Origin: Archangium violaceum | GTDB taxonomy: Bacteria; Myxococcota; Myxococcia; Myxococcales; Myxococcaceae | DNA: 64,000 bases | NCBI RefSeq assembly: GCF_016887565.1 | Contig: NZ_CP069396.1 | Span: 11,514,001 to 11,578,000 of the forward strand | Reading direction: 5' to 3' | In this document: piece after piece, positions 49,550 to 60,316 of the stretch | Numbering within the stretch: position 1 is the stretch's first letter | Layout: each line of letters starts with the position of its first letter | The notes under the pieces: model-generated | The model's input: the letters and a program-made list of their open reading frames with translations, nothing else | What the model was told of the DNA's origin: nothing | Databases searched by the model: none | Translations under genes and position numbers: made by a program

Positions 49550-50728
49550 ATGCAAATGCGCCACTCCCCACGTCCCCTGGCCGCGCTGCTGAGCGCGGCG
49601 GCACTGTCCTTCCTCCCGGGCTGCGAGAGCACGAAGTCGAGCGGCCCTTCTCCCACCGACACCCAGCAGCCCGCCCCCATGAGCACGGACACCGCGTCCT
49701 GGCGGAACGCCCGCGTGGGCGACCGGGTCACCTACACCTTCTCCGCCAACCAGGGCGCCGGGCAACACGGAGGCGCGCGCGCCCTCTCCGGCCAGGCGAC
49801 GCTGGAGGTGGTGGCCGTGCAGCAGCCCTGGGTCTGGGTGCGCCTGGCCTTCGAGGATGCGGCGGGCAAGCCGCTGGCCCAGGCGAAGCTCGCCCAGGAG
49901 CTCATCATCCCCGTGCGCGCGGACACGACGCGCCCGCTCGACGTGCCCCACCGGGGCGAGGCCACCGCCGAGAAGCCCTCCACCGCCGGCCTGACCTGGG
50001 AGGCCGTGCGCTACGTCGAGGACTCGCGCCCCGTGGACGGTCCCCTGCAGACGCGCGTGTACGCCAACGAGCCGGGCCCGCTGTACCTCACCCATGGCCT
50101 GCTCGAGGCGAGCACCGAGCTCGCCGGCTTCCGCACCCCGGGCGGCTTCCAGCTGAAGCTGCGCGAGTTCCGTGAGGGCGAGGCCGGCGCCAAGGCCACT
50201 CCTCCCTCGCTGGAGCGGCCCCTGGGCCCCGGCGCGTACTACGACCGGCGCGTGGAGGTGGGCCCGTCGCCCAGCGTGCAGCGCGTGTGCTTCGGCGCCG
50301 AGCGCGGCTTCATCCTGCGCACCGAGGGCCCCGTCGACACCAGCACCGCGCCCTGCTCCGACTTCTCCCAGGCCGATCCGCAGCCGCTCGAGGAGGCGCT
50401 GCTGGGCCTGCCCTGGGATGCGCTGACCTCCGAGTGGCCTCCGGCGTCCGCCGCGGCCGCCGCCCCTGGGAAGTTCACCGTGGAGGGCCGTGACGTGCCC
50501 GCCCTCACCGCGCAGAACACCGAGAACGTGGAGGGTGTCCAGCGCGTCTTCTCGGAGACCTACGCGGCCGATCCCTGGGCCCCCGCGCTCGCGGGCCTGC
50601 CCCATGAGGCGCGCTTCCAGCCGCTCTCCAGCGGCACCGAGCGCGTGGCCGCCGGAGGCAAGCGCGAGCCCGAGGGCGGCACGCGGCTCGTCCGCTGGGG
50701 CACCTGGGCGGAGGGAAGCCAGAAGTAA
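49550..50728 (+). CDS. Lipoprotein of unknown function (DUF6068-like)
   Basis: 392 residues; lipobox FLPGC near residue 25, then a Ser/Pro/Thr linker. The mature protein is beta-rich (VGDRVTYTFSANQ, VWVRLAFEDAAG). A myxobacterial family label, DUF6068, seems likely but was recalled rather than searched. Two ATGs six bases apart (49550, 49556) could serve; no ribosome site is clear. Divergent from the DUF4139 gene, 59 bases between starts. Confidence 0.62.
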   Translation: MQMRHSPRPLAALLSAAALSFLPGCESTKSSGPSPTDTQQPAPMSTDTASWRNARVGDRVTYTFSANQGAGQHGGARALSGQATLEVVAVQQPWVWVRLAFEDAAGKPLAQAKLAQELIIPVRADTTRPLDVPHRGEATAEKPSTAGLTWEAVRYVEDSRPVDGPLQTRVYANEPGPLYLTHGLLEASTELAGFRTPGGFQLKLREFREGEAGAKATPPSLERPLGPGAYYDRRVEVGPSPSVQRVCFGAERGFILRTEGPVDTSTAPCSDFSQADPQPLEEALLGLPWDALTSEWPPASAAAAAPGKFTVEGRDVPALTAQNTENVEGVQRVFSETYAADPWAPALAGLPHEARFQPLSSGTERVAAGGKREPEGGTRLVRWGTWAEGSQK

Positions 50729-50789
50729 CCCTCGCACCCGGCGTGGGCGGGATGAGCCGGAGCCGGCCATCCCGCCCGCGACCTGCTGA

Positions 50790-52103
50790 CTACGTGCAGT
50801 TGGTGTTGTAGCCGGGGCCGCCGAAGAAGAAGTACCGGCCCCACCCGTTGGCGGTCGAATCCAGGAACAGGGAGATGTCGTAGCAGCCGGCCCAGTCACG
50901 CGTGCCGGTGACCGCCCCCGTCTGGTAGACGCTGTTGGTGTCGATGTACTGGATGCGCCGCTGGTAGGCCGCCTGCTGCCAGCCCGCCGAGGGGTAGGCG
51001 CCGCTGCCCATGTCCGTGGCGGTGTGGCGGCCGCCGTTGCGCTTGTCGATGATCTCCCCGCCGAAGTCCACGTTGGCGGCCGCGTCGCTGATGCCGTTGG
51101 CGTCGAAGAGCGAGCGCGGGTAGTAGCCCACCCAGGTCGTGCCCACGCGCAGCCACCAGTTCCCGGTGGGGCCGTCCTTGTACCACTCGAGCTTCTGCTC
51201 GTACTGGGTGCCGCCCGTGGTGCTGTACGAGCCGAACTTGCCGCCGATGACGACGGAGGTGTCGGTCTGCACGAAGGCCGAGCAGCTCAGGTTGTAGCAG
51301 CCCGTCGTGTAGCCATCCGGCGTGTAGTAGATGAACAGGCGGGAGTTGTTGTCACCGTAGAGCTGGTTGTAGAGCTGGATTCCCGTCTCCACCGTCTCCA
51401 GGTTGGTGCCCGAGCCGCGCGTCACCCAGATCTGCGACAGGCTGAACTCGCTGGTCAGCTCGACGTAGGGGTTCCACAGGTTGAGGGTGCTCGTGGCGCC
51501 GCGGTTGGCCACGATCTGGTAGGCGTGCGCGTACTGGTGCAGGGCGGTGGGACCCGCGGCGGGCGGCTCGATGGCCGAGGGAGGCCGGGGATCGGCGCCA
51601 CCGGGAACCTTGCGGAAGACGTCCTCCAGGCGCTCGAACCGCTTCATGTCATCCAGGGTGAAGCGCAGCACGGGGATGGAGCCCTCGGGGCAGTGCTGCA
51701 CCGCGCCGAACGCGTCGACGCCGTCCGTGAGACCCTGGTGGGGATTGAGACCCCGGGCACCGAAGGTGTCCACGGGCTCCCCCACGGGAGCGGTGCGAGG
51801 CGCCTTCTCGATGGCCTGCTTCTCCATCCCCTGGCGGCGCAGGCCCGGCTGGGCCTCCAGGCGCACGCAATCGATGTCATCTCCCACCGCGCTGCGGAAG
51901 CGGTGCACCACGTCCTGGGGCGAGTAACGCCCATCGAGGTAGCGCTGCATCCGCCCCAGCTCCGCGGCGTCCGGACCCTTGCGAGCCAGCGCTCCCTCCT
52001 GGGTGCGCGTCTGCTCGGCCGGAGCCTCCCCCGCCGTGTCGGGCATACCGCACCCGGCCAGGGCCATCAGGGACAACACACCCATTCCAAACTTTCCAGT
52101 CAT
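50790..52103 (-). CDS. Neprosin-family (glutamic) endopeptidase lipoprotein
   Basis: 437 residues, lipobox LMALAGC (Cys18). The C-terminal half is a neprosin domain, known best from the prolyl endopeptidase of pitcher-plant fluid: FSLSQIWV, VETGIQLY (Glu239), RLFIYYTPDGYTTGCYN, NWWL, VGYYPRSLF, FGGE (Glu350) and MGSGAYPSAGW. The two Glu correspond to the catalytic pair of this glutamic peptidase family. The N-terminal half likely includes an inhibitory propeptide. Start at ATG 52103 is backed by AGGAGG six bases upstream. It is read with the Cys-rich lipoprotein gene 26 bases ahead. Confidence 0.85.
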   Translation of the reverse strand: MTGKFGMGVLSLMALAGCGMPDTAGEAPAEQTRTQEGALARKGPDAAELGRMQRYLDGRYSPQDVVHRFRSAVGDDIDCVRLEAQPGLRRQGMEKQAIEKAPRTAPVGEPVDTFGARGLNPHQGLTDGVDAFGAVQHCPEGSIPVLRFTLDDMKRFERLEDVFRKVPGGADPRPPSAIEPPAAGPTALHQYAHAYQIVANRGATSTLNLWNPYVELTSEFSLSQIWVTRGSGTNLETVETGIQLYNQLYGDNNSRLFIYYTPDGYTTGCYNLSCSAFVQTDTSVVIGGKFGSYSTTGGTQYEQKLEWYKDGPTGNWWLRVGTTWVGYYPRSLFDANGISDAAANVDFGGEIIDKRNGGRHTATDMGSGAYPSAGWQQAAYQRRIQYIDTNSVYQTGAVTGTRDWAGCYDISLFLDSTANGWGRYFFFGGPGYNTNCT

Positions 52104-52129
52104 TGTCTTCCTCCTGTTTCCCAAAAAGC

Positions 52130-52507
52130 TCACTTGCAATCGGTAGGGCAGTTGCAAGGGTTTTCACCCTCGCGGCACTCGCCGTCGCCACATCGCGCGC
52201 AGACGAAACGCCCGCCCTTCGAGACGAGACACTGGCCCGGCCGCGCGGCGGATTCATAGGCATCCAACCGCGTCAGTCCGGAGCAGCATGACGGCGAGGA
52301 CTCGCCGCGCCCGGTGGCCCGCTGTTCCTCATAGGCAGAGGAGCCCTGCCCTTCTCCCAGGCAGCTCCCCGTCTGGGCTCCGGAGTCGGTTCGCACGGCC
52401 TGCTCGGCGGCGCGCTCCTCGTCCCGAATCACCCCGGCCGAGCCCGCCGATGGCTGGCAACCCGCCAGCAACATGACAATGAGCCCGATACCGCACCATG
52501 CCTTCAT
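52130..52507 (-). CDS. Small Cys-rich lipoprotein
   Basis: 125 residues, lipobox MLLAGC (Cys17). The C-terminal 30 residues hold the motif CGDGECREGENPCNCPTDC, a knot-like, probably calcium-binding or disulfide-rich element known from secreted proteins of delta-proteobacteria. Function unknown. It precedes the neprosin gene in the same transcription unit, so the two could work together outside the cell. Confidence 0.72.
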   Translation of the reverse strand: MKAWCGIGLIVMLLAGCQPSAGSAGVIRDEERAAEQAVRTDSGAQTGSCLGEGQGSSAYEEQRATGRGESSPSCCSGLTRLDAYESAARPGQCLVSKGGRFVCARCGDGECREGENPCNCPTDCK

Positions 52508-52715
52508 CTGATCTCCCCCCTCTGGCCGTCCACACCGGCCTCCGCTGATTTCCCTCTCATACCACAGTTCATCCAGAATTGAAGTAGGAATCCGAAAATC
52601 CTGAATTCCCTACGCGGCACGTGGGTGAGGCCCGTGAAAACAACCAGGAGAGTCATTGACGTACAGTGTTGAGAGCATCACACTGCCCGAGTAGCCAGAC
52701 ACTCAGGGGGGACGT
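52508..52715. other. Divergent intergenic region before the unusual gene cluster
   Basis: 208 bases, more AT-rich around 52550-52620 than anything nearby. It must hold promoters for both the lipoprotein operon and the cluster. TTGACG at 52656 may be a -35 box; no good -10 was seen. Confidence 0.45.
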
Positions 52716-53885
52716 TTGGATTTCGCCGCGCAACAGGCATTGATGGAGCCACTGGGCAAACCGCCGCCCTTCTCGAGGAACGAAGGGGAGGCACGGCTGG
52801 TGGTGCGCTCCATCGGCACCGCGGGAGCCGGGATGGTGCGGACGCTGAAGCACATCCTGCCCTACCCGGAGTCACAGGTCGCGGCCCTCCTCTACCAGGC
52901 GCCCTCGGAGCTCGTCGTGGGCCTGCCGCGCCCGGTGGCGGAAGCCATGAGCCGGATGCTGCGCGACACCGGTCTGGAATCCGACGTCCTCGACGCCCGC
53001 GAGTCCTTCGACCCGGGCCTGGGCGACCACGAGGTGGCGCTCGTCGTCCACCAGGTCGAGCACATGGGCTCCATCATCCAGGAGCTCGTCTCCGTGCTCG
53101 GGCTGGACGTGACCACGGCCCGGAAGATGGCGTGTGCCTCGCCCGCCATCCTGCTCGGGCGCATCTCGTCCGCCACGGTCGAGGCCCTGCGCAAGCGCTT
53201 CGCGCCGTGGGGCGCCGAGCTGGACGCCTCGAAGCCGCGCGAGGCGCTGTTCGATCTGTTCATCGTCGAGGGCGCGGCGGCCACCCGGGCGGCGGTGCAG
53301 CGCGCCCTGCGGGACGCGGGCGTGCCGCTGACCGAGGACAAGGAGCACTCCAGCAAGGCCCTGGTCGCGATGGGGTTGGATGCGCCCAGGGCTCACGCCA
53401 TCTGGGAGCGGCTGCAGCGGACCGGCACCTCGCTGCGGTTGATCAACCGTGACTTCCAGCGCTTCGAGGTGGTGCTCGAGCAGGCACGGCCCTCCTCGGC
53501 CCTGACCGACTTCCTCCACCGCGGCGCGGGCATTCCACCGGCGGTCGTGCCGAAGCTGCTCGAGCGGCGGCCCATCGTCACCCACCACAACATTCCCCAC
53601 GCGGCGCTCGGGCCCTGCCTGGAGGAGTTCGCCCGGCTCGACTGCCAGGTGACGGCGCGGCTGTTGAGCTTCCAGACCTTCTCCCTCGAGCTCACCGAGG
53701 TCCGCGACATGGCGGCCACCCTGCTCACGCTGCGCGTGGTGGCGGACCTGGATGATGCACGGGCCCGGTCGTTGCTACAGGCCCTGCCGGCCCGGATCGA
53801 GGGCCCCTTCACACCCCTGCACGCGCGCTGGTTGCAGTACGAGCTGAAGAGGATTGGGACCACCGCCCGGCTGGTGCTGCGATGA
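52716..53885 (+). CDS. Protein of five tandem L7/L12-C-terminal-like modules
   Basis: 389 residues. After about 25 residues the chain divides into five units of about 70 residues with the beta-alpha-alpha-beta-alpha-beta rhythm of the ribosomal L7/L12 C-terminal domain. Unit one (LVVRSIGTAGAGMVRTLKHIL, then APSELVVGLPRPVAEAM, then DTGLESDVL) is clearest. Units two (LGLDVTTARKMACASPAIL), three, four and five are more diverged; all end in a Gly or Cys followed by a strand. L7/L12 domains recruit GTPases and other partners, so this may be a multivalent scaffold; that is inferred. TTG start with AGGGGG ahead. Its stop overlaps the TPR gene by four bases. Confidence 0.68.
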   Translation: MDFAAQQALMEPLGKPPPFSRNEGEARLVVRSIGTAGAGMVRTLKHILPYPESQVAALLYQAPSELVVGLPRPVAEAMSRMLRDTGLESDVLDARESFDPGLGDHEVALVVHQVEHMGSIIQELVSVLGLDVTTARKMACASPAILLGRISSATVEALRKRFAPWGAELDASKPREALFDLFIVEGAAATRAAVQRALRDAGVPLTEDKEHSSKALVAMGLDAPRAHAIWERLQRTGTSLRLINRDFQRFEVVLEQARPSSALTDFLHRGAGIPPAVVPKLLERRPIVTHHNIPHAALGPCLEEFARLDCQVTARLLSFQTFSLELTEVRDMAATLLTLRVVADLDDARARSLLQALPARIEGPFTPLHARWLQYELKRIGTTARLVLR

Positions 53886-54454
53886 ACGCCCCGCGCCCCA
53901 CGCCTCCGGCCCACCTCGGCATCGCCGAGCAGGGAAAGCTCCATGCGCTGCGTGGGGAGTACGAGGTGGCGCTGCTGCACTACCGCGAGGCCATGCGCCA
54001 GGCCGTGCGGCGGAACGACCCGGAGGTCTTCTTCCGGCACTACCTGGAGTGCGCCATCGAGGCGTTGGAGCAGAGCGGCTCCTGGCCCGAGGTCCTCGAC
54101 TACTGCGACCGGGCCCTGGCCCATTACCGCGACCATCCTCCGCCCGACGACATGGCGCGAAGGGACCTGGCGAGCATCCACCAGCGACGCGGCGTGGTCC
54201 TGCTCAAGTCCGGGAAGCGTGACGCCGCCCGGGAAGCCCTGCGTGCCGCCCTGGCGGCCCTGCCCACGGGCCAGACGCTTCCGCTGACCAGTCAGCTCCT
54301 CCGCTGGCTGGACAGCGGTTACCACCTCGACCCCGACCGCATCACCGCCGAGCAGAGGCGTTGGAGCTACTTCTCGGTGCGGACCGGCCAGGTCGATGCC
54401 CGCATCGCCACGCCACTGCCACCGGGACATCCCGGTCTCTCCCCTCGCACCTGA
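53882..54454 (+). CDS. TPR protein of the unusual cluster
   Basis: 190 residues, with three to four tetratricopeptide-like helix pairs: GKLHALRGEYEVALLHYREAM, then FRHYLECAIEALEQSG, then HQRRGVVLLKSGKRDAAREAL. TPRs bind partner proteins. The C-terminal 50 residues are not repeats (WSYFSVRTGQVDARIA). No signal peptide. The overlap with the module protein upstream suggests equal, coupled synthesis. Confidence 0.78.
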   Translation: MNAPRPTPPAHLGIAEQGKLHALRGEYEVALLHYREAMRQAVRRNDPEVFFRHYLECAIEALEQSGSWPEVLDYCDRALAHYRDHPPPDDMARRDLASIHQRRGVVLLKSGKRDAAREALRAALAALPTGQTLPLTSQLLRWLDSGYHLDPDRITAEQRRWSYFSVRTGQVDARIATPLPPGHPGLSPRT

Positions 54455-54478
54455 CGAAGTCCAGGAAAGGACTCCCAC

Positions 54479-55399
54479 ATGTTGGAAGACAGGCTCCAGA
54501 ACATGTCCCCGGGCGAGGTGCTGCAAGACGCCCCCATCAGCCAGCTCATCGAGAAGCTCAGCCTCGCCATCGCGGACGCGCAGCTGCGGCTCGACAGCAA
54601 CAGCATCAGCATCACGTGGATGCTCGGGAACACGACGGTCGACATCCGGGATGCCAGCGGCAAGGCCCAGAGCCGGAGTCTGCTCGAGCTGGGCTTCACC
54701 CCGTCCTTCTATCACTTCGAGCGAGTGGTCCTCGAAGTGAAGATGCAGATCGCCATGAAGGTGGAGGAGAGCACCGGGGCGCGTCTGGACTTCAATCTGG
54801 GCACGAACACCGCCAGGAATCAGGGCGGCACGGGTAACACCGGTGGCACGGCGCCTGGCGGCAATCAGGCCTCTCAGCCTGGAGGCAATCAAGCTCCTCC
54901 ATCCGGAGGTAATCAGACCTCCACTCCTGGCGGCGGGCAGGCCTCCCCTCCTGGCGGTGCTCCAGGCTCTCAGCCCGCTGGCAAGCCCACGGCTCCGACC
55001 GCACCCGGAACACCAGCCTCGTCAACGACTGGTGGCTCTGGTGCTCCCGCCTCCGGTGCCCCTGCTTCTGGCGCTCCTGCCTCCGGTGCTCCTGCCTCCG
55101 GTAACCCGCAGCCCTCCAGCAGTTCCCCCGCCCCGAACACGAGCCAGGGCCAGCCGCAGAGGGAAGCCGTTCCGTTCGGCATCTCCGTCAGCCTCGAATA
55201 CAGCCGCAAGTACAACTACGACGTGAGCGGCTCCTCCTCGGTCACGGCGACCCTGGTATCGGTGCCCGCGCCGACGGCCTTCCTCGAGGCCGTCAAGATC
55301 GCCACGGGCACGGGCGGCTCGTCCGGCGCTCCCCCGCCCCCGGGTGGAGGTACCCCCAACGACCCGTCCGGCCCCTCCGGCGGCCCTTCCGGTCCCTGA
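54479..55399 (+). CDS. LELGFTP-family paralog 1 with low-complexity insert
   Basis: 306 residues. The family core is split: the N-terminal half has ISQLIEKLSLAIADAQLRLD and LLELGFTPSFYHFERVVLEVKM; the C-terminal strand is YSRKYNYDVSGSSSVTATLVSVPAP. Between them lie about 110 residues of Gly/Pro/Ser/Ala repeats (PGGNQAS units and SGAPA units). The extreme end is again Gly/Pro-rich. No signal peptide or membrane helix. I do not recognise the family; six members of varying similarity occur in this cluster. A ribosome site (AGGA) precedes the ATG. Confidence 0.72.
   Translation: MLEDRLQNMSPGEVLQDAPISQLIEKLSLAIADAQLRLDSNSISITWMLGNTTVDIRDASGKAQSRSLLELGFTPSFYHFERVVLEVKMQIAMKVEESTGARLDFNLGTNTARNQGGTGNTGGTAPGGNQASQPGGNQAPPSGGNQTSTPGGGQASPPGGAPGSQPAGKPTAPTAPGTPASSTTGGSGAPASGAPASGAPASGAPASGNPQPSSSSPAPNTSQGQPQREAVPFGISVSLEYSRKYNYDVSGSSSVTATLVSVPAPTAFLEAVKIATGTGGSSGAPPPPGGGTPNDPSGPSGGPSGP
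55037..55096 (+). repeat. 15-bp tandem repeat (SGAPA units)
   Basis: Four units of 15 bases (e.g. TCCGGTGCTCCTGCC) inside paralog 1, following looser 24-base PGGNQ repeats at about 54853-54960. Probably prone to slippage. Confidence 0.8.
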
Positions 55400-55426
55400 A
55401 ACCGCCAGCCCTGACCGGAGCTCCCA

Positions 55427-55888
55427 ATGGCCGACATCAACACCCTCATGCAGCAATCACCGCTGCCCGAGATGCTCGAGCGGCTGGGCGTGGCCATCGC
55501 CAATGCCCAGTACGCCATCGACAAGAAGTCCCTCCAGATCGCCCAGCTCATGGCGGACACCGAGAACGGTCTCCAGCTCGGCCCGGACGGAGAGAAGCGG
55601 AGCCTGCTCGAGCTCGGCTTCACCCCGACCTTCTATCACCTCTCCGAGGCCACCATCGATGCCCGGGTCGCCTTCAGCATCGGCCAGTCCTCGGAGTTCT
55701 CCGTGGGCGCCAGCGTGGGCGTGAACATCTACTTCTTCGCCGCCTCGGTGAACGCCAGCTACACGGCGAAGTACTCCTTCGACGCCAGCGCCTCGAGCGC
55801 CATCCGGGCCCGCTTCGTCTCCGTCCCACCGCCCACGGTGCTGGCCGATCTCCTGCGCTCCACGTTCACCCGAAAGACGGGCGGATAG
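55427..55888 (+). CDS. LELGFTP-family paralog 2
   Basis: 153 residues, the shortest paralog and almost only core: LPEMLERLGVAIANAQYAIDKKSL, LLELGFTPTFYHLSEATID, then a hydrophobic beta stretch (GVNIYFFAASVNASY), and YTAKYSFDASASSAIRARFVSVPPPTVL. It probably defines the minimal fold: a long helix, two or three strands and a C-terminal strand with the Pro run. No known function. Confidence 0.74.
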   Translation: MADINTLMQQSPLPEMLERLGVAIANAQYAIDKKSLQIAQLMADTENGLQLGPDGEKRSLLELGFTPTFYHLSEATIDARVAFSIGQSSEFSVGASVGVNIYFFAASVNASYTAKYSFDASASSAIRARFVSVPPPTVLADLLRSTFTRKTGG

Positions 55889-55939
55889 CCCCCATCCCCG
55901 CAGTCCCTCTCAACGCAGCATCCCAAGGAGGATTCCGAC

Positions 55940-56518
55940 ATGGCCATTGGCCACGAACTGCTCAACGTGCCCATGGGCGACATGATTCGCCAGATGGCTT
56001 TCGCGATCGCGGATGCTCAGCTGGATCTGGATGAGTCCAGCGCCCGCGTCGCCGAGATGATGAGTGGCTACCGCGTCCTGCGAGACGCGGATGGCAACCT
56101 GGTGGACGCCACCGGCAAGGCCAGCGCCACGCCCGTGTACGTCGACACCCGCGTCACCTTCGGCCGCGATGCCGCCAACAAGCCCGAGAAGCTCAGCATG
56201 ATGGAGCTGGGCTTCACCCCGACCTTCTATCAGTTCATCGAGACGGTCATCGAGGTGAAGATCGCCATCCGCGTCACCCGCGAGCGGGCCTACGACACGA
56301 AGGAGCAGACCAAGAGCAACCAGTACCGGCTGCGCAGCTCCAACGGTCTGAAGGTCACCACCACCACCGTCGACGCCTCCTACTCGTCCAAGTACGGCTA
56401 CAGCGCCGAGGGCTCCAGCCTGCTGCGCACCAAGCTGGTCCCCGTGCCGCCTCCTCCCGTCCTGGAGGAGCGCATCCGGCGCATGTTCGAGCAGAACGAC
56501 AAGCCCCCCACCCCGTAG
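55940..56518 (+). CDS. LELGFTP-family paralog 3
   Basis: 192 residues. N-terminal helix MGDMIRQMAFAIADAQLDLDE, then an inserted hairpin, MELGFTPTFYQFIETVIEVKIAIRV, and KYGYSAEGSSLLRTKLVPVPPPPVLEERIRRMF. The last part is nearly identical, also in DNA, to paralog 4. GGAGG lies 11 bases before the ATG. Alternation of Val/Ile with charged residues in the IEVKIAIRV strand suggests an edge strand able to pair with a neighbour subunit; this is inference. Confidence 0.75.
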   Translation: MAIGHELLNVPMGDMIRQMAFAIADAQLDLDESSARVAEMMSGYRVLRDADGNLVDATGKASATPVYVDTRVTFGRDAANKPEKLSMMELGFTPTFYQFIETVIEVKIAIRVTRERAYDTKEQTKSNQYRLRSSNGLKVTTTTVDASYSSKYGYSAEGSSLLRTKLVPVPPPPVLEERIRRMFEQNDKPPTP

Positions 56519-56538
56519 GCGTCCACTAGGAGCCCTTC

Positions 56539-57144
56539 ATGCCCTTCCCAAGCAACGCCAGCATCGGCCAGCAACTCCTGGATGTGCCCTTCCCGGACAT
56601 GATCAAGAGCATGGGTCTGGCCATCGCCCAGGCCCAGTTCGAGCTGGATCAGGTCGGTCTGCGCCTGGCCCAGATGATGTCCGGTCAGTACGAGATCGAG
56701 GAGCCGGATCCCCTCGACCCCGAGAAGACCAAGACCGTCCAGAAGGAGGCCTACATCACCTTCGACGGCAAGAAGCTCTCCATGCTCGAGCTGGGCTTCA
56801 CCCCCACCTTCTACCAGTTCGTCGACACCATCATCGAGGTGAAGATCTCGATGAGCATGAGCTACGACCGCTCGTACAAGCGGTCGACGTCGAACACCAG
56901 GCTCAATGCCTCGACCAGCTTCTTCATCTTCGGTGGAGGCCTCAGCGCCAGCGTCTCCTCGGTGAGCGCCAGCTACGCCTCGCGCTACCAGTACAGCGCC
57001 GAGGGCTCCAGTCTGCTGCGCACCAAGCTGGTCCCCGTGCCGCCTCCGGCCGTGTTGGAGGAGCGCATCCGCCGCATCCTCGACCGGCAGAACAGCACCG
57101 AGGGCGGTGGTGGCGGCGGACCCTCGTCTCCTCCCGGGGGGTGA
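56539..57144 (+). CDS. LELGFTP-family paralog 4
   Basis: 201 residues. FPDMIKSMGLAIAQAQFELD, MLELGFTPTFYQFVDTIIEVKISMSM, a Gly/Ser-rich hydrophobic stretch (FFIFGGGLSASVSSVSAS) like that of paralog 2, and YQYSAEGSSLLRTKLVPVPPPAVLEERIRRIL. Ends with a Gly-rich tail. Starts 20 bases after paralog 3 and ends three bases before the coiled-coil gene. Confidence 0.75.
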   Translation: MPFPSNASIGQQLLDVPFPDMIKSMGLAIAQAQFELDQVGLRLAQMMSGQYEIEEPDPLDPEKTKTVQKEAYITFDGKKLSMLELGFTPTFYQFVDTIIEVKISMSMSYDRSYKRSTSNTRLNASTSFFIFGGGLSASVSSVSASYASRYQYSAEGSSLLRTKLVPVPPPAVLEERIRRILDRQNSTEGGGGGGPSSPPGG

Positions 57145-57147
57145 GCC

Positions 57148-57915
57148 ATGACGTCCTACCTGAGCTGGCAGGATCTGCTGGACGACGAGCCGGCCGCGCC
57201 GCCGGCTCCAGCCGCTCCCGCTCCGGACACCGCGGCGGGCCAGGGGAACATCGCGTCTCCTCCGCCCCCGGTGCCCGAGGCACTGTCGCGGCTGCTCTCC
57301 GAGCGCGAGCAGCTCGAACGTCGTCTCAAGGGGCTCACCGGCCAGGGCGAGGCGGACCCGGAGGAGGAGCGCCGCCAGCGCTGCTTCCCGGTGCGCGCCC
57401 ATACCAAGGAGAGCCGCATCGAGGAGCGGCAGTTCCAGCGGCGCGACGAGCACACGCGGATACTGGCCCGTCAGGCCCAGGAGCGCCATGTCATCGAGCG
57501 GCGTCAGGAGGCCGCGCGCCAGGAGGCGCGGGAGCAGGCCGTGGAGGAGCACCGGCAGCAACAGCGGTTGGAGTCGCTGTACGAGGCCTGGCGGCAGGAG
57601 CAGCAGGAGGAGGCGAAGCGCCTCGCCGAGGAGCGGGCCCGGCTCCAGGAGCGTTGGCAGGGAACGCGCCAACAGGCACTGCGGAACGCGGCCCTGGAGA
57701 AGCAGCGCCTCCAGAGCTGGCACGACGAGCGCAACGCTTCACTCGCCGCCAACCGCCTCCAGCGCGGCATCGAGCAGCGCCAGCAGCGTCAGGACGAGGA
57801 ACGAGCCCTCGAGGAAGCCCGGGAGCGCCGGGCCCAGGCTCAACGAGAGCATCAGCAGGAGCTCCGCCGGGAGGAGCGCGCCCGGGAGCGGCAACAACAC
57901 CGGGATACACGCTGA
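57148..57915 (+). CDS. Charged coiled-coil protein of the cluster
   Basis: 255 residues. After an Ala/Pro-rich start (WQDLLDDEPAAPPAP) the chain is almost pure Glu/Arg/Gln with regular Leu, e.g. EREQLERRLKGL and EEHRQQQRLESLYEAW, i.e. a long single or coiled helix of about 180 residues. No Cys, no membrane segment. Most likely a rod or linker protein for the assembly formed by its neighbours; similarity-based naming is impossible in such composition. Confidence 0.68.
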   Translation: MTSYLSWQDLLDDEPAAPPAPAAPAPDTAAGQGNIASPPPPVPEALSRLLSEREQLERRLKGLTGQGEADPEEERRQRCFPVRAHTKESRIEERQFQRRDEHTRILARQAQERHVIERRQEAARQEAREQAVEEHRQQQRLESLYEAWRQEQQEEAKRLAEERARLQERWQGTRQQALRNAALEKQRLQSWHDERNASLAANRLQRGIEQRQQRQDEERALEEARERRAQAQREHQQELRREERARERQQHRDTR

Positions 57916-57963
57916 GCAGGCCATCATGATGGCCGCGAGACATTCATAGGGGACGCCATCCGC

Positions 57964-58677
57964 ATGACGACCACCACCGCCCAGGACTTCATCGAGAATA
58001 CGCTGGATGACTACCTCGTCAGCCTGGCCGAGGGCATCCAGGAAGCACAGCTCCAGCTCAATCGCATCCAGATCGCCGGGCCGGGGGGCCAGTCCCCCAT
58101 CACCTACCATCTGCCGCGAGTCGACTTCGAGCTGAAGCTGACCTTCGAGATGACACAGGGCTCGCAGACGTCATCGACGGGCACGACGAAGATCGGCACC
58201 AGTTCCTCGAAGGGACCGGTGCTCGTCTTCAAGCCCGCGATTGCCCAACAGTCTGGCGGCCAGCAGGTGCAGGCCGAGGCCTTGAGCATCATCAAGGGCA
58301 GCTTCGTGGCCGTCCCCGCCAACGGTGGGCAGCCGCCGCCCGTGCTCCGGTGCTCGCTGGCCCGTGGCGCCGCTCCCGGCGAGACGCTCGTCACCGTCAC
58401 GCTCCTCAATGCGATCGGCGAGCCCCAGTCCGGTGTCGAGGTGCAATTCAATATCGACCCGGAGCGCAGCGCGGCCCTGAGCGCGCCGGACGTGCCCCAG
58501 CTCAAGCTCCAGGCCGACACCCGGGTCCTCTACGGCGTGCGCGTCACCGACAGCAATGGACAGGCCCAGAACACGCTCCGGGTCAGCCCCAACGAGCCGG
58601 CCAAGGCCATCGTGGCCCTGGTCATCGACGCGATGGGACAGACCGAGACCGTCATCGCCCAGGGGGGAACGAAATGA
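57964..58677 (+). CDS. Divergent LELGFTP-family paralog fused to an Ig-like domain
   Basis: 237 residues. Residues 1-125 follow the family layout loosely: LDDYLVSLAEGIQEAQLQLNR, YHLPRVDFELKLTFEM, then IIKGSFVAVPANGGQPP in place of VPVPPP. Residues about 130-235 form an invasin/Big-type Ig-like domain (VTVTLLNAIGEPQSGVEVQFNI, then YGVRVTDSNGQAQNTLRVS). No signal peptide. The stop overlaps the next ATG by four bases. Confidence 0.66.
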   Translation: MTTTTAQDFIENTLDDYLVSLAEGIQEAQLQLNRIQIAGPGGQSPITYHLPRVDFELKLTFEMTQGSQTSSTGTTKIGTSSSKGPVLVFKPAIAQQSGGQQVQAEALSIIKGSFVAVPANGGQPPPVLRCSLARGAAPGETLVTVTLLNAIGEPQSGVEVQFNIDPERSAALSAPDVPQLKLQADTRVLYGVRVTDSNGQAQNTLRVSPNEPAKAIVALVIDAMGQTETVIAQGGTK

Positions 58678-59627
58678 GCCTCACCGTGAAGGCCGTGCTG
58701 TTCAGCCCGACGGGTGAGTCCGTGGTGGGCATCGAGGCGCAGGTCTGCATCTTCATGCTCAACGGCTCGGCCCAGGTCATCGGCACCGGAAAGACGGACG
58801 CCAAGGGCGCGTTGCTCATCACCACCAACTGGCAGGCCCCCAGCACCTACCAGCCCCGGCTGCAGCTCCTCGTCCGCCGCGGCACCGCCTTCGTCGAGCT
58901 CGCGGAGAACCTCCAGAGCTTCGCCAACGAGGCCGCCGACTTCGGCTCCCTGGCACTGCCCGCGCTCGTGGCGGGAGTCGTGCAGCCCATGGTGACCATC
59001 CCCCAGGGCGCCATTCCCGTGGTCAAGCCCACCCTCGGCACCGCCATCCCCACCGCCGCCACGATTCCCGTCACCTCGATTCCCGTCACCTCGATTCCCG
59101 TCACTTCGATTCCCGTCACTTCGATTCCCACCACCTCGACACCGCCGATACCGGCGCCCACCACCGAGACGTCACTGCAACAGGTGTTCGAGGGCACCGG
59201 GACCCAGGTCCAGCGAGCGCAGGATGCGCTGCGCACCAGCAACAGCAACTTCCGCCTGGGGAAGGTCTCCCTGCAACTCAAGGTGTTGCCGGGCACCACC
59301 GCGGGGAGCGTGGTGCTGCCAAAGCCAGACGACATCACCAAGGTCGGCAACCAGGGGCTGAGCCAGATCAACTTCGACCTCGAGAGCGTCGACAAGCCAC
59401 AGCTCCCCATCCCGACGGCCACCGCCCAGCCCCTGCCGCTGCTCACCGGCTACACCGAGGTGCACGCGCGCAGGCTGCTCGCCGGGAACCAGTTGCAGCT
59501 CGAGGTGCTCCAGCAACTGGTGGATCGCGAAGAGGATGTCGGCCGCGTCATGTTGCAGAGACCCCCGGCGGGCACCCCCATGAAGCCCCGAACTCTCGTC
59601 ACCATCGCCGTCGGAAGGAAGGGATAG
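58674..59627 (+). CDS. PASTA-domain protein with IPVTS repeats
   Basis: 317 residues. N-terminal beta domain (LTVKAVLFSPTGESVVGIEAQV, a transthyretin- or Ig-like sandwich), a linker with five repeats of IPVTS/IPTTS, a middle part (NFRLGKVSLQLKVLPG) that recalls trypsin-co-occurring-type domains, and a C-terminal PASTA-like domain (LPLLTGYTEVHARRLLAGNQL, then PPAGTPMKPRTLVTIAV). PASTA domains normally sit outside the cell on kinases or penicillin-binding proteins; here no export signal is visible. Confidence 0.66.
   Translation: MSLTVKAVLFSPTGESVVGIEAQVCIFMLNGSAQVIGTGKTDAKGALLITTNWQAPSTYQPRLQLLVRRGTAFVELAENLQSFANEAADFGSLALPALVAGVVQPMVTIPQGAIPVVKPTLGTAIPTAATIPVTSIPVTSIPVTSIPVTSIPTTSTPPIPAPTTETSLQQVFEGTGTQVQRAQDALRTSNSNFRLGKVSLQLKVLPGTTAGSVVLPKPDDITKVGNQGLSQINFDLESVDKPQLPIPTATAQPLPLLTGYTEVHARRLLAGNQLQLEVLQQLVDREEDVGRVMLQRPPAGTPMKPRTLVTIAVGRKG
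59064..59138 (+). repeat. 15-bp tandem repeat (IPVTS units)
   Basis: Five units of 15 bases (ATTCCCGTCACCTCG and variants) in the linker of the PASTA protein gene. Confidence 0.85.
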
Positions 59628-59633
59628 CCCACC

Positions 59634-60272
59634 ATGGCCACCCAGGACCCCAAGGATCTGCTCGATGCGCTGTCCGCCCCCGTGGGGGAGCTCATCGCCT
59701 CCGTCGGGCGCGGTGTCGCCGAGGCCCAACAGGAGATGGATGCGCAGACGCTCGCCACCATCCGCAGCATCTACGGCGAGTCGGGCAATACCGAGCTGCT
59801 CTCCACCCTGCGGCAGATTGGCTACCAGCCGACCTGGTACCACATCCCCGAGGTCACCGCGGAGATCAACGTGGCGATCTCCATCGTCGGTCAGGCCACC
59901 CAGCAGGCCCAGACCACCGGAGCCACCACCTCCACCGCCGGGAAACAGAAGCTCGCCGCGCGCCCACGTCTCTACGCGGCCCCCGTCGACGCCGGCTACA
60001 GCAACCGTTACGGCTATGACGTCAAGGCCGCCAGCGTGGTGAAGTTCCGCATCGTGCCGGTACCGCCCTCGGCCAACACGGAGAACCTCCGGGTGGTGCC
60101 CAACCTGCTCGGAAAGACCTTCGCCCAGGCCCGCACCGCCCTGGACACGCTGGGCATCACCTACCGCGTGGGTGGAGACACCGCTCCGGCCGACACGGCT
60201 TCGGTGAAGGCCCAGACACCGGCCGCCGGCGAGCTCATCCCGGGCTCCCGGGACCTCGAGCTCTCCTTCTGA
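59634..60272 (+). CDS. LELGFTP-family paralog fused to a PASTA domain
   Basis: 212 residues. Residues 1-145 carry the family core in diverged form: VGELIASVGRGVAEAQQEMD, LRQIGYQPTWYHIPEVTAEINV, and SNRYGYDVKAASVVKFRIVPVPPS. Residues about 148-212 are one PASTA domain (VVPNLLGKTFAQARTALDTLGI, then TPAAGELIPGSRDLELSF). Last gene of the cluster, seven bases after the previous stop. No signal peptide. Confidence 0.74.
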   Translation: MATQDPKDLLDALSAPVGELIASVGRGVAEAQQEMDAQTLATIRSIYGESGNTELLSTLRQIGYQPTWYHIPEVTAEINVAISIVGQATQQAQTTGATTSTAGKQKLAARPRLYAAPVDAGYSNRYGYDVKAASVVKFRIVPVPPSANTENLRVVPNLLGKTFAQARTALDTLGITYRVGGDTAPADTASVKAQTPAAGELIPGSRDLELSF

Positions 60273-60278
60273 AACACC

Positions 60279-60302
60279 GCGGCCCCGTCGGAGCGGGGCC
60301 GC
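60279..60302. terminator. GC-rich hairpin closing the cluster
   Basis: GCGGCCCCG and CGGGGCCGC form a perfect 9-bp stem with a six-base loop between two convergent genes. No T-run, so terminator function is only likely. Confidence 0.6.
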
Positions 60303-60316
60303 GCCCCGGCCCGCGC

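What the first reader, a model, noticed from the sequence alone, without database searches (positions are those of the whole stretch)
52716..53885. Five tandem modules that look like the ribosomal L7/L12 C-terminal domain
L7/L12 has one such domain per chain and works as a multimer that recruits translation GTPases. Here about five are joined in one chain. The first unit keeps the APxxLVVGL...AExMxxxLxxTG pattern; later units keep spacing and the hydrophobic frame. A single-chain multivalent recruiter outside the ribosome would be new.
Basis: inference. Interest (0 to 1): 0.75.

Follow-up and report, generated by a model that had tools for sequence, protein, structure and literature searches.

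The report
Five-module L12-fold scaffold protein
A soil myxobacterium carries a patchily distributed block of genes whose first member strings together five copies of a fold otherwise known from the ribosome's stalk, but with the ribosomal binding surface lost, so it is probably a scaffold for the proteins encoded beside it rather than a helper of protein synthesis.

Summary
ORF 52716-53885 (+, 389 aa) encodes five consecutive units with the fold of the ribosomal L7/L12 C-terminal domain (CTD): four complete, and one (unit 3) lacking a helix. An AlphaFold2 model built without any L7/L12 sequence has pLDDT 87.8 and shows the expected strand and helix order; unit 5 matches solved L7/L12 CTDs at Z 11.5. 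All units beat shuffled and unrelated controls in profile comparison.

The lysines that L7/L12 uses to bind translation GTPases are not kept as a set in any unit, and no translation-GTPase family was detected among the neighbours. Tandem extra-ribosomal L12-CTD proteins, much closer to L7/L12, also occur in other myxobacteria.

The gene opens a conserved operon of about 10 genes (TPR partner, paralogous 'LGFTPTFY' proteins, coiled coil, Ig-like and PASTA proteins) found in 9 of about 190 Myxococcota genomes. Its first gene was also found in 3 of 395 Gemmatimonadota genomes. It lies in a 9.6-kb block missing from two sister genomes. I read the protein as a cytosolic multivalent scaffold for the operon's paralogous proteins; this function is inferred, not shown.

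The parts
52716..53885 (+). Five-module L7/L12-CTD-like protein, 389 aa (TTG start after a GGGGGG ribosome-binding-like stretch; residues 1-20 disordered)
52788..52994 (+). Unit 1 (residues 25-93), complete L12-CTD topology
   Evidence: hhalign 27.5; Z 10.0
53028..53231 (+). Unit 2 (residues 105-172), complete topology; the Pfam PF00542 match lies here
   Evidence: hhalign 25.1
53247..53447 (+). Unit 3 (residues 178-244), degenerate: second helix missing
   Evidence: hhalign 14.7
53460..53663 (+). Unit 4 (residues 249-316), complete; best profile match to L7/L12
   Evidence: hhalign 32.6; Z 9.7
53679..53879 (+). Unit 5 (residues 322-388), complete; best structural match to L7/L12
   Evidence: hhalign 15.4; Z 11.5
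53882..54454 (+). TPR protein, start codon overlaps the stop of the five-module gene; adjacent in every locus whose downstream side is on the contig
54479..55399 (+). Paralogous 'LGFTPTFY' protein A1 with a low-complexity insert (ortholog position carries an OmpA domain in Corallococcus)
55427..55888 (+). Paralogous 'LGFTPTFY' protein A2
55940..56518 (+). Paralogous 'LGFTPTFY' protein A3
56539..57144 (+). Paralogous 'LGFTPTFY' protein A4
57148..57915 (+). Charged coiled-coil-like protein with conserved N-terminal 'SWxDLL' motif
57964..58677 (+). Protein with weak Big_1 Ig-like match
58674..59627 (+). Protein whose ortholog position carries Ig-like and PASTA domains
59634..60272 (+). Family-A paralog whose ortholog carries a C-terminal PASTA domain
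50728..60316 (.). Block present here and missing from sister genomes G005 (58 bp between the flanks) and G003 (98 bp)

Best explanation
The protein is an extra-ribosomal, single-chain array of five L7/L12-CTD-fold modules, encoded first in a patchily distributed accessory operon. SHOWN: five modules; conserved order and co-inheritance with the operon; loss of the bL12 GTPase-binding residues; no signal peptide-like or membrane-like stretch by hydropathy. INFERRED: in the cytosol it works, with its translationally coupled TPR partner, as a rigid or semi-rigid multivalent scaffold (assembly platform or chaperone) that holds the paralogous 'LGFTPTFY' proteins made from the same operon. Some of these carry OmpA, PASTA or Ig-like domains of kinds that bind peptidoglycan or extracellular partners. 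The rough match between five modules and five to six family-A paralogs suggests one module per paralog; this is a guess.
For: Five units in a confident model and L7/L12 fold matches; profile tests with controls. Same gene order in window, Archangium violaceum, Corallococcus, Myxococcus sp. and a Gemmatimonadota MAG. Family A occurs in exactly the same nine Myxococcota genomes as the five-module gene, so the two are needed together or transferred together. Start/stop overlap with the TPR gene in window, L018, L020 and L030. Purifying selection, dN/dS 0.2-0.5. Highest per-element conservation lies in different elements than in bL12: bL12 peaks in helices 1-2 (0.86, 0.92), here helices 1-2 reach only 0.55-0.72.
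Against: No binding partner was tested, and co-occurrence in one operon may reflect joint transfer only. The OmpA and PASTA domains would normally act outside the cytoplasm, yet no export signal was seen, so where the assembly acts is unclear. The function of family A is unknown (no Pfam, NCBIfam, PHROGs or PDB match).
Confidence: 0.45

Rival explanations
1. A single-chain recruiter of translation GTPases, acting like a soluble ribosomal stalk.
For: Same fold as the bL12 CTD; multivalency resembles the several bL12 copies on the ribosome; unit 1 keeps R at the K70 position in 9 of 12 orthologs and unit 5 keeps R at the K84 position in 9.
Against: K65, K70, K81, K84 and R73 are never kept together in one unit; 'VIKxVR' and 'GLGLKxAK' absent; helices 1-2 are not the conserved face; no translation-related family detected among the neighbours; absent from most relatives.
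Confidence: 0.07
2. An array of ClpS-like adaptor modules that feed substrates to an AAA+ protease.
For: ClpS shares the fold; Z 9.5 to ClpS chains, close to the L7/L12 values.
Against: No Pfam ClpS match at E up to 10; an ND[DE]xT-type degron-pocket motif is absent in all 12 orthologs; no Clp protease gene among the neighbours scanned; L7/L12 chains score higher than ClpS.
Confidence: 0.08
3. The multimerising part of a conflict or defence system, comparable to the L12/ClpS insertions reported in vWA-MoxR systems.
For: L12/ClpS domains are reported there (PMC7159879); patchy distribution and clean presence/absence at a site; weak Trypco2 match in the last operon gene of Corallococcus.
Against: No meaningful PADLOC hit; no vWA, MoxR, protease or nuclease family seen in the operon proteins scanned; no phage or plasmid copies found.
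Confidence: 0.17
4. A structural part of a particle or envelope-linked assembly built from the family-A proteins, rather than an assembly helper.
For: Many paralogs per operon, with OmpA, PASTA and Ig-like domains on some.
Against: No phage-tail, contractile-injection or gas-vesicle family matches.
Confidence: 0.2

Closest known systems
Ribosomal protein bL12 (L7/L12), C-terminal domain, PF00542
   Same: Fold and strand/helix order; the Pro before strand 2 in units 1, 2, 4 and 5 and the Gly before strand 3; PF00542 is the only family matched by the whole ortholog set.
   Different: Five modules in one chain, one degenerate; no N-terminal dimerisation domain was recognised by Pfam; factor-binding lysines not kept; not in a ribosomal operon.
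Tandem extra-ribosomal L12-CTD proteins of other myxobacteria (L098-L102, found here)
   Same: Two or three L12 CTDs in one chain, outside the ribosome.
   Different: They keep bL12-like motifs and pass the Pfam cut-off clearly; several have signal-peptide-like N-termini or a cysteine-rich N-terminus; none has five modules; not compared for the family-A operon.
ClpS adaptor (PF02617)
   Same: Same overall fold, Z about 9.5.
   Different: No sequence match and no degron-pocket motif.
L12/ClpS insertions in vWA proteins of Bacteroidetes conflict systems (PMC7159879)
   Same: L12-type domain used outside the ribosome.
   Different: There inserted into vWA proteins; here a stand-alone array without vWA or MoxR neighbours.

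Membership tests
L7/L12 CTD domain family (PF00542) | CTD fold (strand-helix-helix-strand-helix-strand) | tested here: met
   topology; Z 9.7-11.5 for units 1, 4 and 5. Unit 2 by topology and Pfam only; unit 3 lacks helix 2.
L7/L12 CTD domain family (PF00542) | Pfam gathering cut-off (25.9 bits, whole protein) | tested here: inconclusive
   Window protein 15.0 bits, below; ortholog L016 26.5 bits, above.
Ribosomal protein bL12 | Conserved factor-binding lysines (K65, K70, K81, K84) | tested here: not met
   residues named in PMC9239087 and PMC10602876.
Ribosomal protein bL12 | Being the genome's ribosomal copy, with one CTD per chain | tested here: not met
   Separate ordinary bL12 at G000:C1:8053687-8053887, E 1.1e-29; five modules here.
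Ribosomal protein bL12 | Binding to translation GTPases | not testable with these tools
   Needs a binding assay.
ClpS | ClpS profile match | tested here: not met
   No PF02617 at E up to 10.
ClpS | Degron-pocket motif after strand 1 | tested here: not met
   Motif scan on 12 orthologs empty.
vWA-MoxR conflict system with L12/ClpS domain | vWA and MoxR genes in the operon | tested here: not met
   Pfam scans of operon proteins show none.

The most novel reading that the evidence does not exclude
The operon encodes an undescribed cellular assembly, made of paralogous family-A subunits with cell-wall-type domains, whose order or stoichiometry is set by a five-site L12-fold scaffold: a ribosomal-stalk domain turned into a ruler or assembly platform.
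Probability: 0.25. Interest if true: 0.75.

Novelty: new variant of a known kind. Interest (0 to 1): 0.5.

Why it matters
It shows the L7/L12 CTD fold used as a repeated module away from translation, in an operon that appears to be exchanged or lost as a unit across two phyla. If the scaffold idea is right, it gives a small genetic system (one scaffold, one TPR partner, several paralogous clients) for asking how a multivalent array sorts related subunits. It also warns that 'ribosomal L7/L12' annotations in myxobacteria include proteins with no ribosomal role.

Tried and rejected
A single-sequence AF2 model was useless (pLDDT 42.7) and was not interpreted. A first genome-contig scan with the single protein found nothing; an alignment query did. 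Phage, plasmid and viral collections gave no relatives of the five-module protein or of family A. A Foldseek viral hit to a crAss-like phage protein looked tandem but carries one L12 CTD only. The idea that family A belongs to DUF2589 was not supported: the DUF2589 model finds nothing in this genome, though that search had no positive control. Family A had no informative PDB, PADLOC or PHROGs match. Weak hits L010-L015 were not followed. Foldseek hits to EF-G and spliceosomal chains have TM-scores of 0.08-0.18 and rmsd near 20, and were ignored. No solved structure with a tandem array was listed; this does not exclude one.

Full report
WHAT IS THERE. The window lies in a 13.2-Mb myxobacterial genome of the same held genus as G004, whose locus is Archangium violaceum Cb vi76. 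ORF 52716-53885 (+) encodes 389 aa. Its only Pfam match is the L7/L12 CTD, weak in this protein (E 0.033) but shared by all nine Myxococcota orthologs (best E 1.6e-7). A profile of the nine sequences picks L7/L12 chains first in the PDB (E 0.005).

FIVE UNITS. An AF2 model on 12 orthologs, with no ribosomal sequence in the alignment, is confident (pLDDT 87.8, pTM 0.82) and shows five successive units. Units 1, 2, 4 and 5 have the full L7/L12 CTD order of elements; unit 3 lacks helix 2. VIA-align puts L7/L12 chains at the top (unit 5 Z 11.5, unit 1 Z 10.0, unit 4 Z 9.7), with ClpS next at about 9.5. Profile comparison of each unit with 18 L7/L12 CTDs gives scores of 14.7-32.6, above every shuffled control (maximum 11.4), every window of unrelated neighbouring families (maximum 7.5) and the reversed profile (maximum 4.4). 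hhalign probabilities are modest (2-73%), as expected for distant, shallow profiles, so units 3 and 5 rest mainly on structure and on position in the array. The units also resemble each other, units 4 and 5 most.

NOT A GTPASE RECRUITER AS FAR AS SEQUENCE TELLS. K81 and K84 of bL12 lie on a helix that binds IF2, EF-Tu, EF-G and RF3 (PMC9239087), and changes at K65 and K70 weaken EF-Tu binding (PMC10602876). No unit keeps the set: position 65 is S/D/G/T in unit 1, F/M/I/V/T in unit 2 and a gap in unit 4; position 70 is R in unit 1 only; position 84 is A, A and P in units 1, 2 and 4, and R in unit 5. Unit 3 was left out of that count because its helix 2 is missing. In bL12, helices 1-2 are the most conserved elements (0.86 and 0.92); here they are not (0.55-0.72), and helix 3 stands out in units 2 and 5. 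The two conservation sets differ in depth and breadth, so this is supporting evidence only. The genome has its own ordinary bL12.

THE OPERON. Downstream and on the same strand come a TPR gene with an overlapping start, four 'LGFTPTFY' paralogs (family A), a coiled-coil-like protein, two proteins with Ig-like or PASTA features and a fifth family-A protein with a PASTA-like end. The order recurs in Archangium violaceum, Corallococcus, a Myxococcus sp. and a Gemmatimonadota MAG, and a more distant Gemmatimonadota genome keeps the TPR and family-A genes. A third Gemmatimonadota hit (G387) has its gene at a contig end, so its downstream genes could not be checked. Several Corallococcus contigs also end inside the operon. 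The proteins show no signal-peptide-like or membrane-like stretch by a simple hydropathy scan; no dedicated predictor was available.

DISTRIBUTION AND MOBILITY. Nine of 195 Myxococcota genomes carry the five-module gene strongly, and the same nine of 189 carry family A. Three of 395 Gemmatimonadota genomes carry the five-module gene. In sister genome G005 the sequences flanking window 50728 and 60316 lie 58 bp apart, and in G003 98 bp apart, so a 9.6-kb block is present here and absent there; in G004 the operon sits on a different contig from these flanks. This shows presence/absence at the site. Whether it was gained here or lost there was not tested, and no integrase or phage link was found. 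The block also holds two genes upstream of the operon (50790-52157 and 52130-52507, both -).

WIDER SETTING. A PF00542 scan of 12 myxobacterial genomes found other extra-ribosomal tandem CTD proteins: three CTDs in G162, two in G030, G104 and G105, all with signal-peptide-like starts, and two in G001 behind a cysteine-rich stretch. These keep bL12-like motifs. They mean that a tandem L12-CTD chain is not unique to this protein. I found no paper on them in the library searched, which holds open-licence papers only. L12/ClpS domains outside the ribosome are reported in conflict systems (PMC7159879).

FUNCTION. The best reading is a cytosolic multivalent scaffold for the operon's paralogous proteins (confidence 0.45). 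It rests on anatomy, fixed gene order and perfect co-occurrence, not on any binding data. The count of five modules against five to six family-A proteins is suggestive only.

Noticed in passing
L099:1018-1782 (-), L098:1231-1812 (-), L100:1378-1962 (+), L101:1417-1959 (+): Myxobacterial proteins with three (L099) or two tandem L7/L12 CTDs that keep bL12-like motifs but begin with signal-peptide-like stretches, so possibly exported.
   Followed up: partly
L102:1252-2397 (+): In a same-genus genome (G001), a 382-aa frame with a cysteine-rich, zinc-ribbon-like N-terminal region followed by two L12-CTD-like units.
   Followed up: no
L104, L105, L106, L107, L108, L109: Proteins with a membrane-anchor-like stretch and two to three short 'AIKLYRExxGVGLKEAKDAVEA' repeats that match only part of the L12 CTD profile.
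   Followed up: no
L086:1030-1956 (+): crAss-like phage cr126_1 encodes a 308-aa protein with a single L12 CTD (E 5e-12) beside the DNA primase gene.
   Followed up: partly
window 50790-52507 (-): Two genes inside the block missing from sister genomes but outside the conserved operon; N-termini look lipoprotein-like.
   Followed up: no
window 49550-50728 (+): DUF6068 gene at the left edge of the block; similar copies (80-85% identity) lie elsewhere in this and sister genomes.
   Followed up: no
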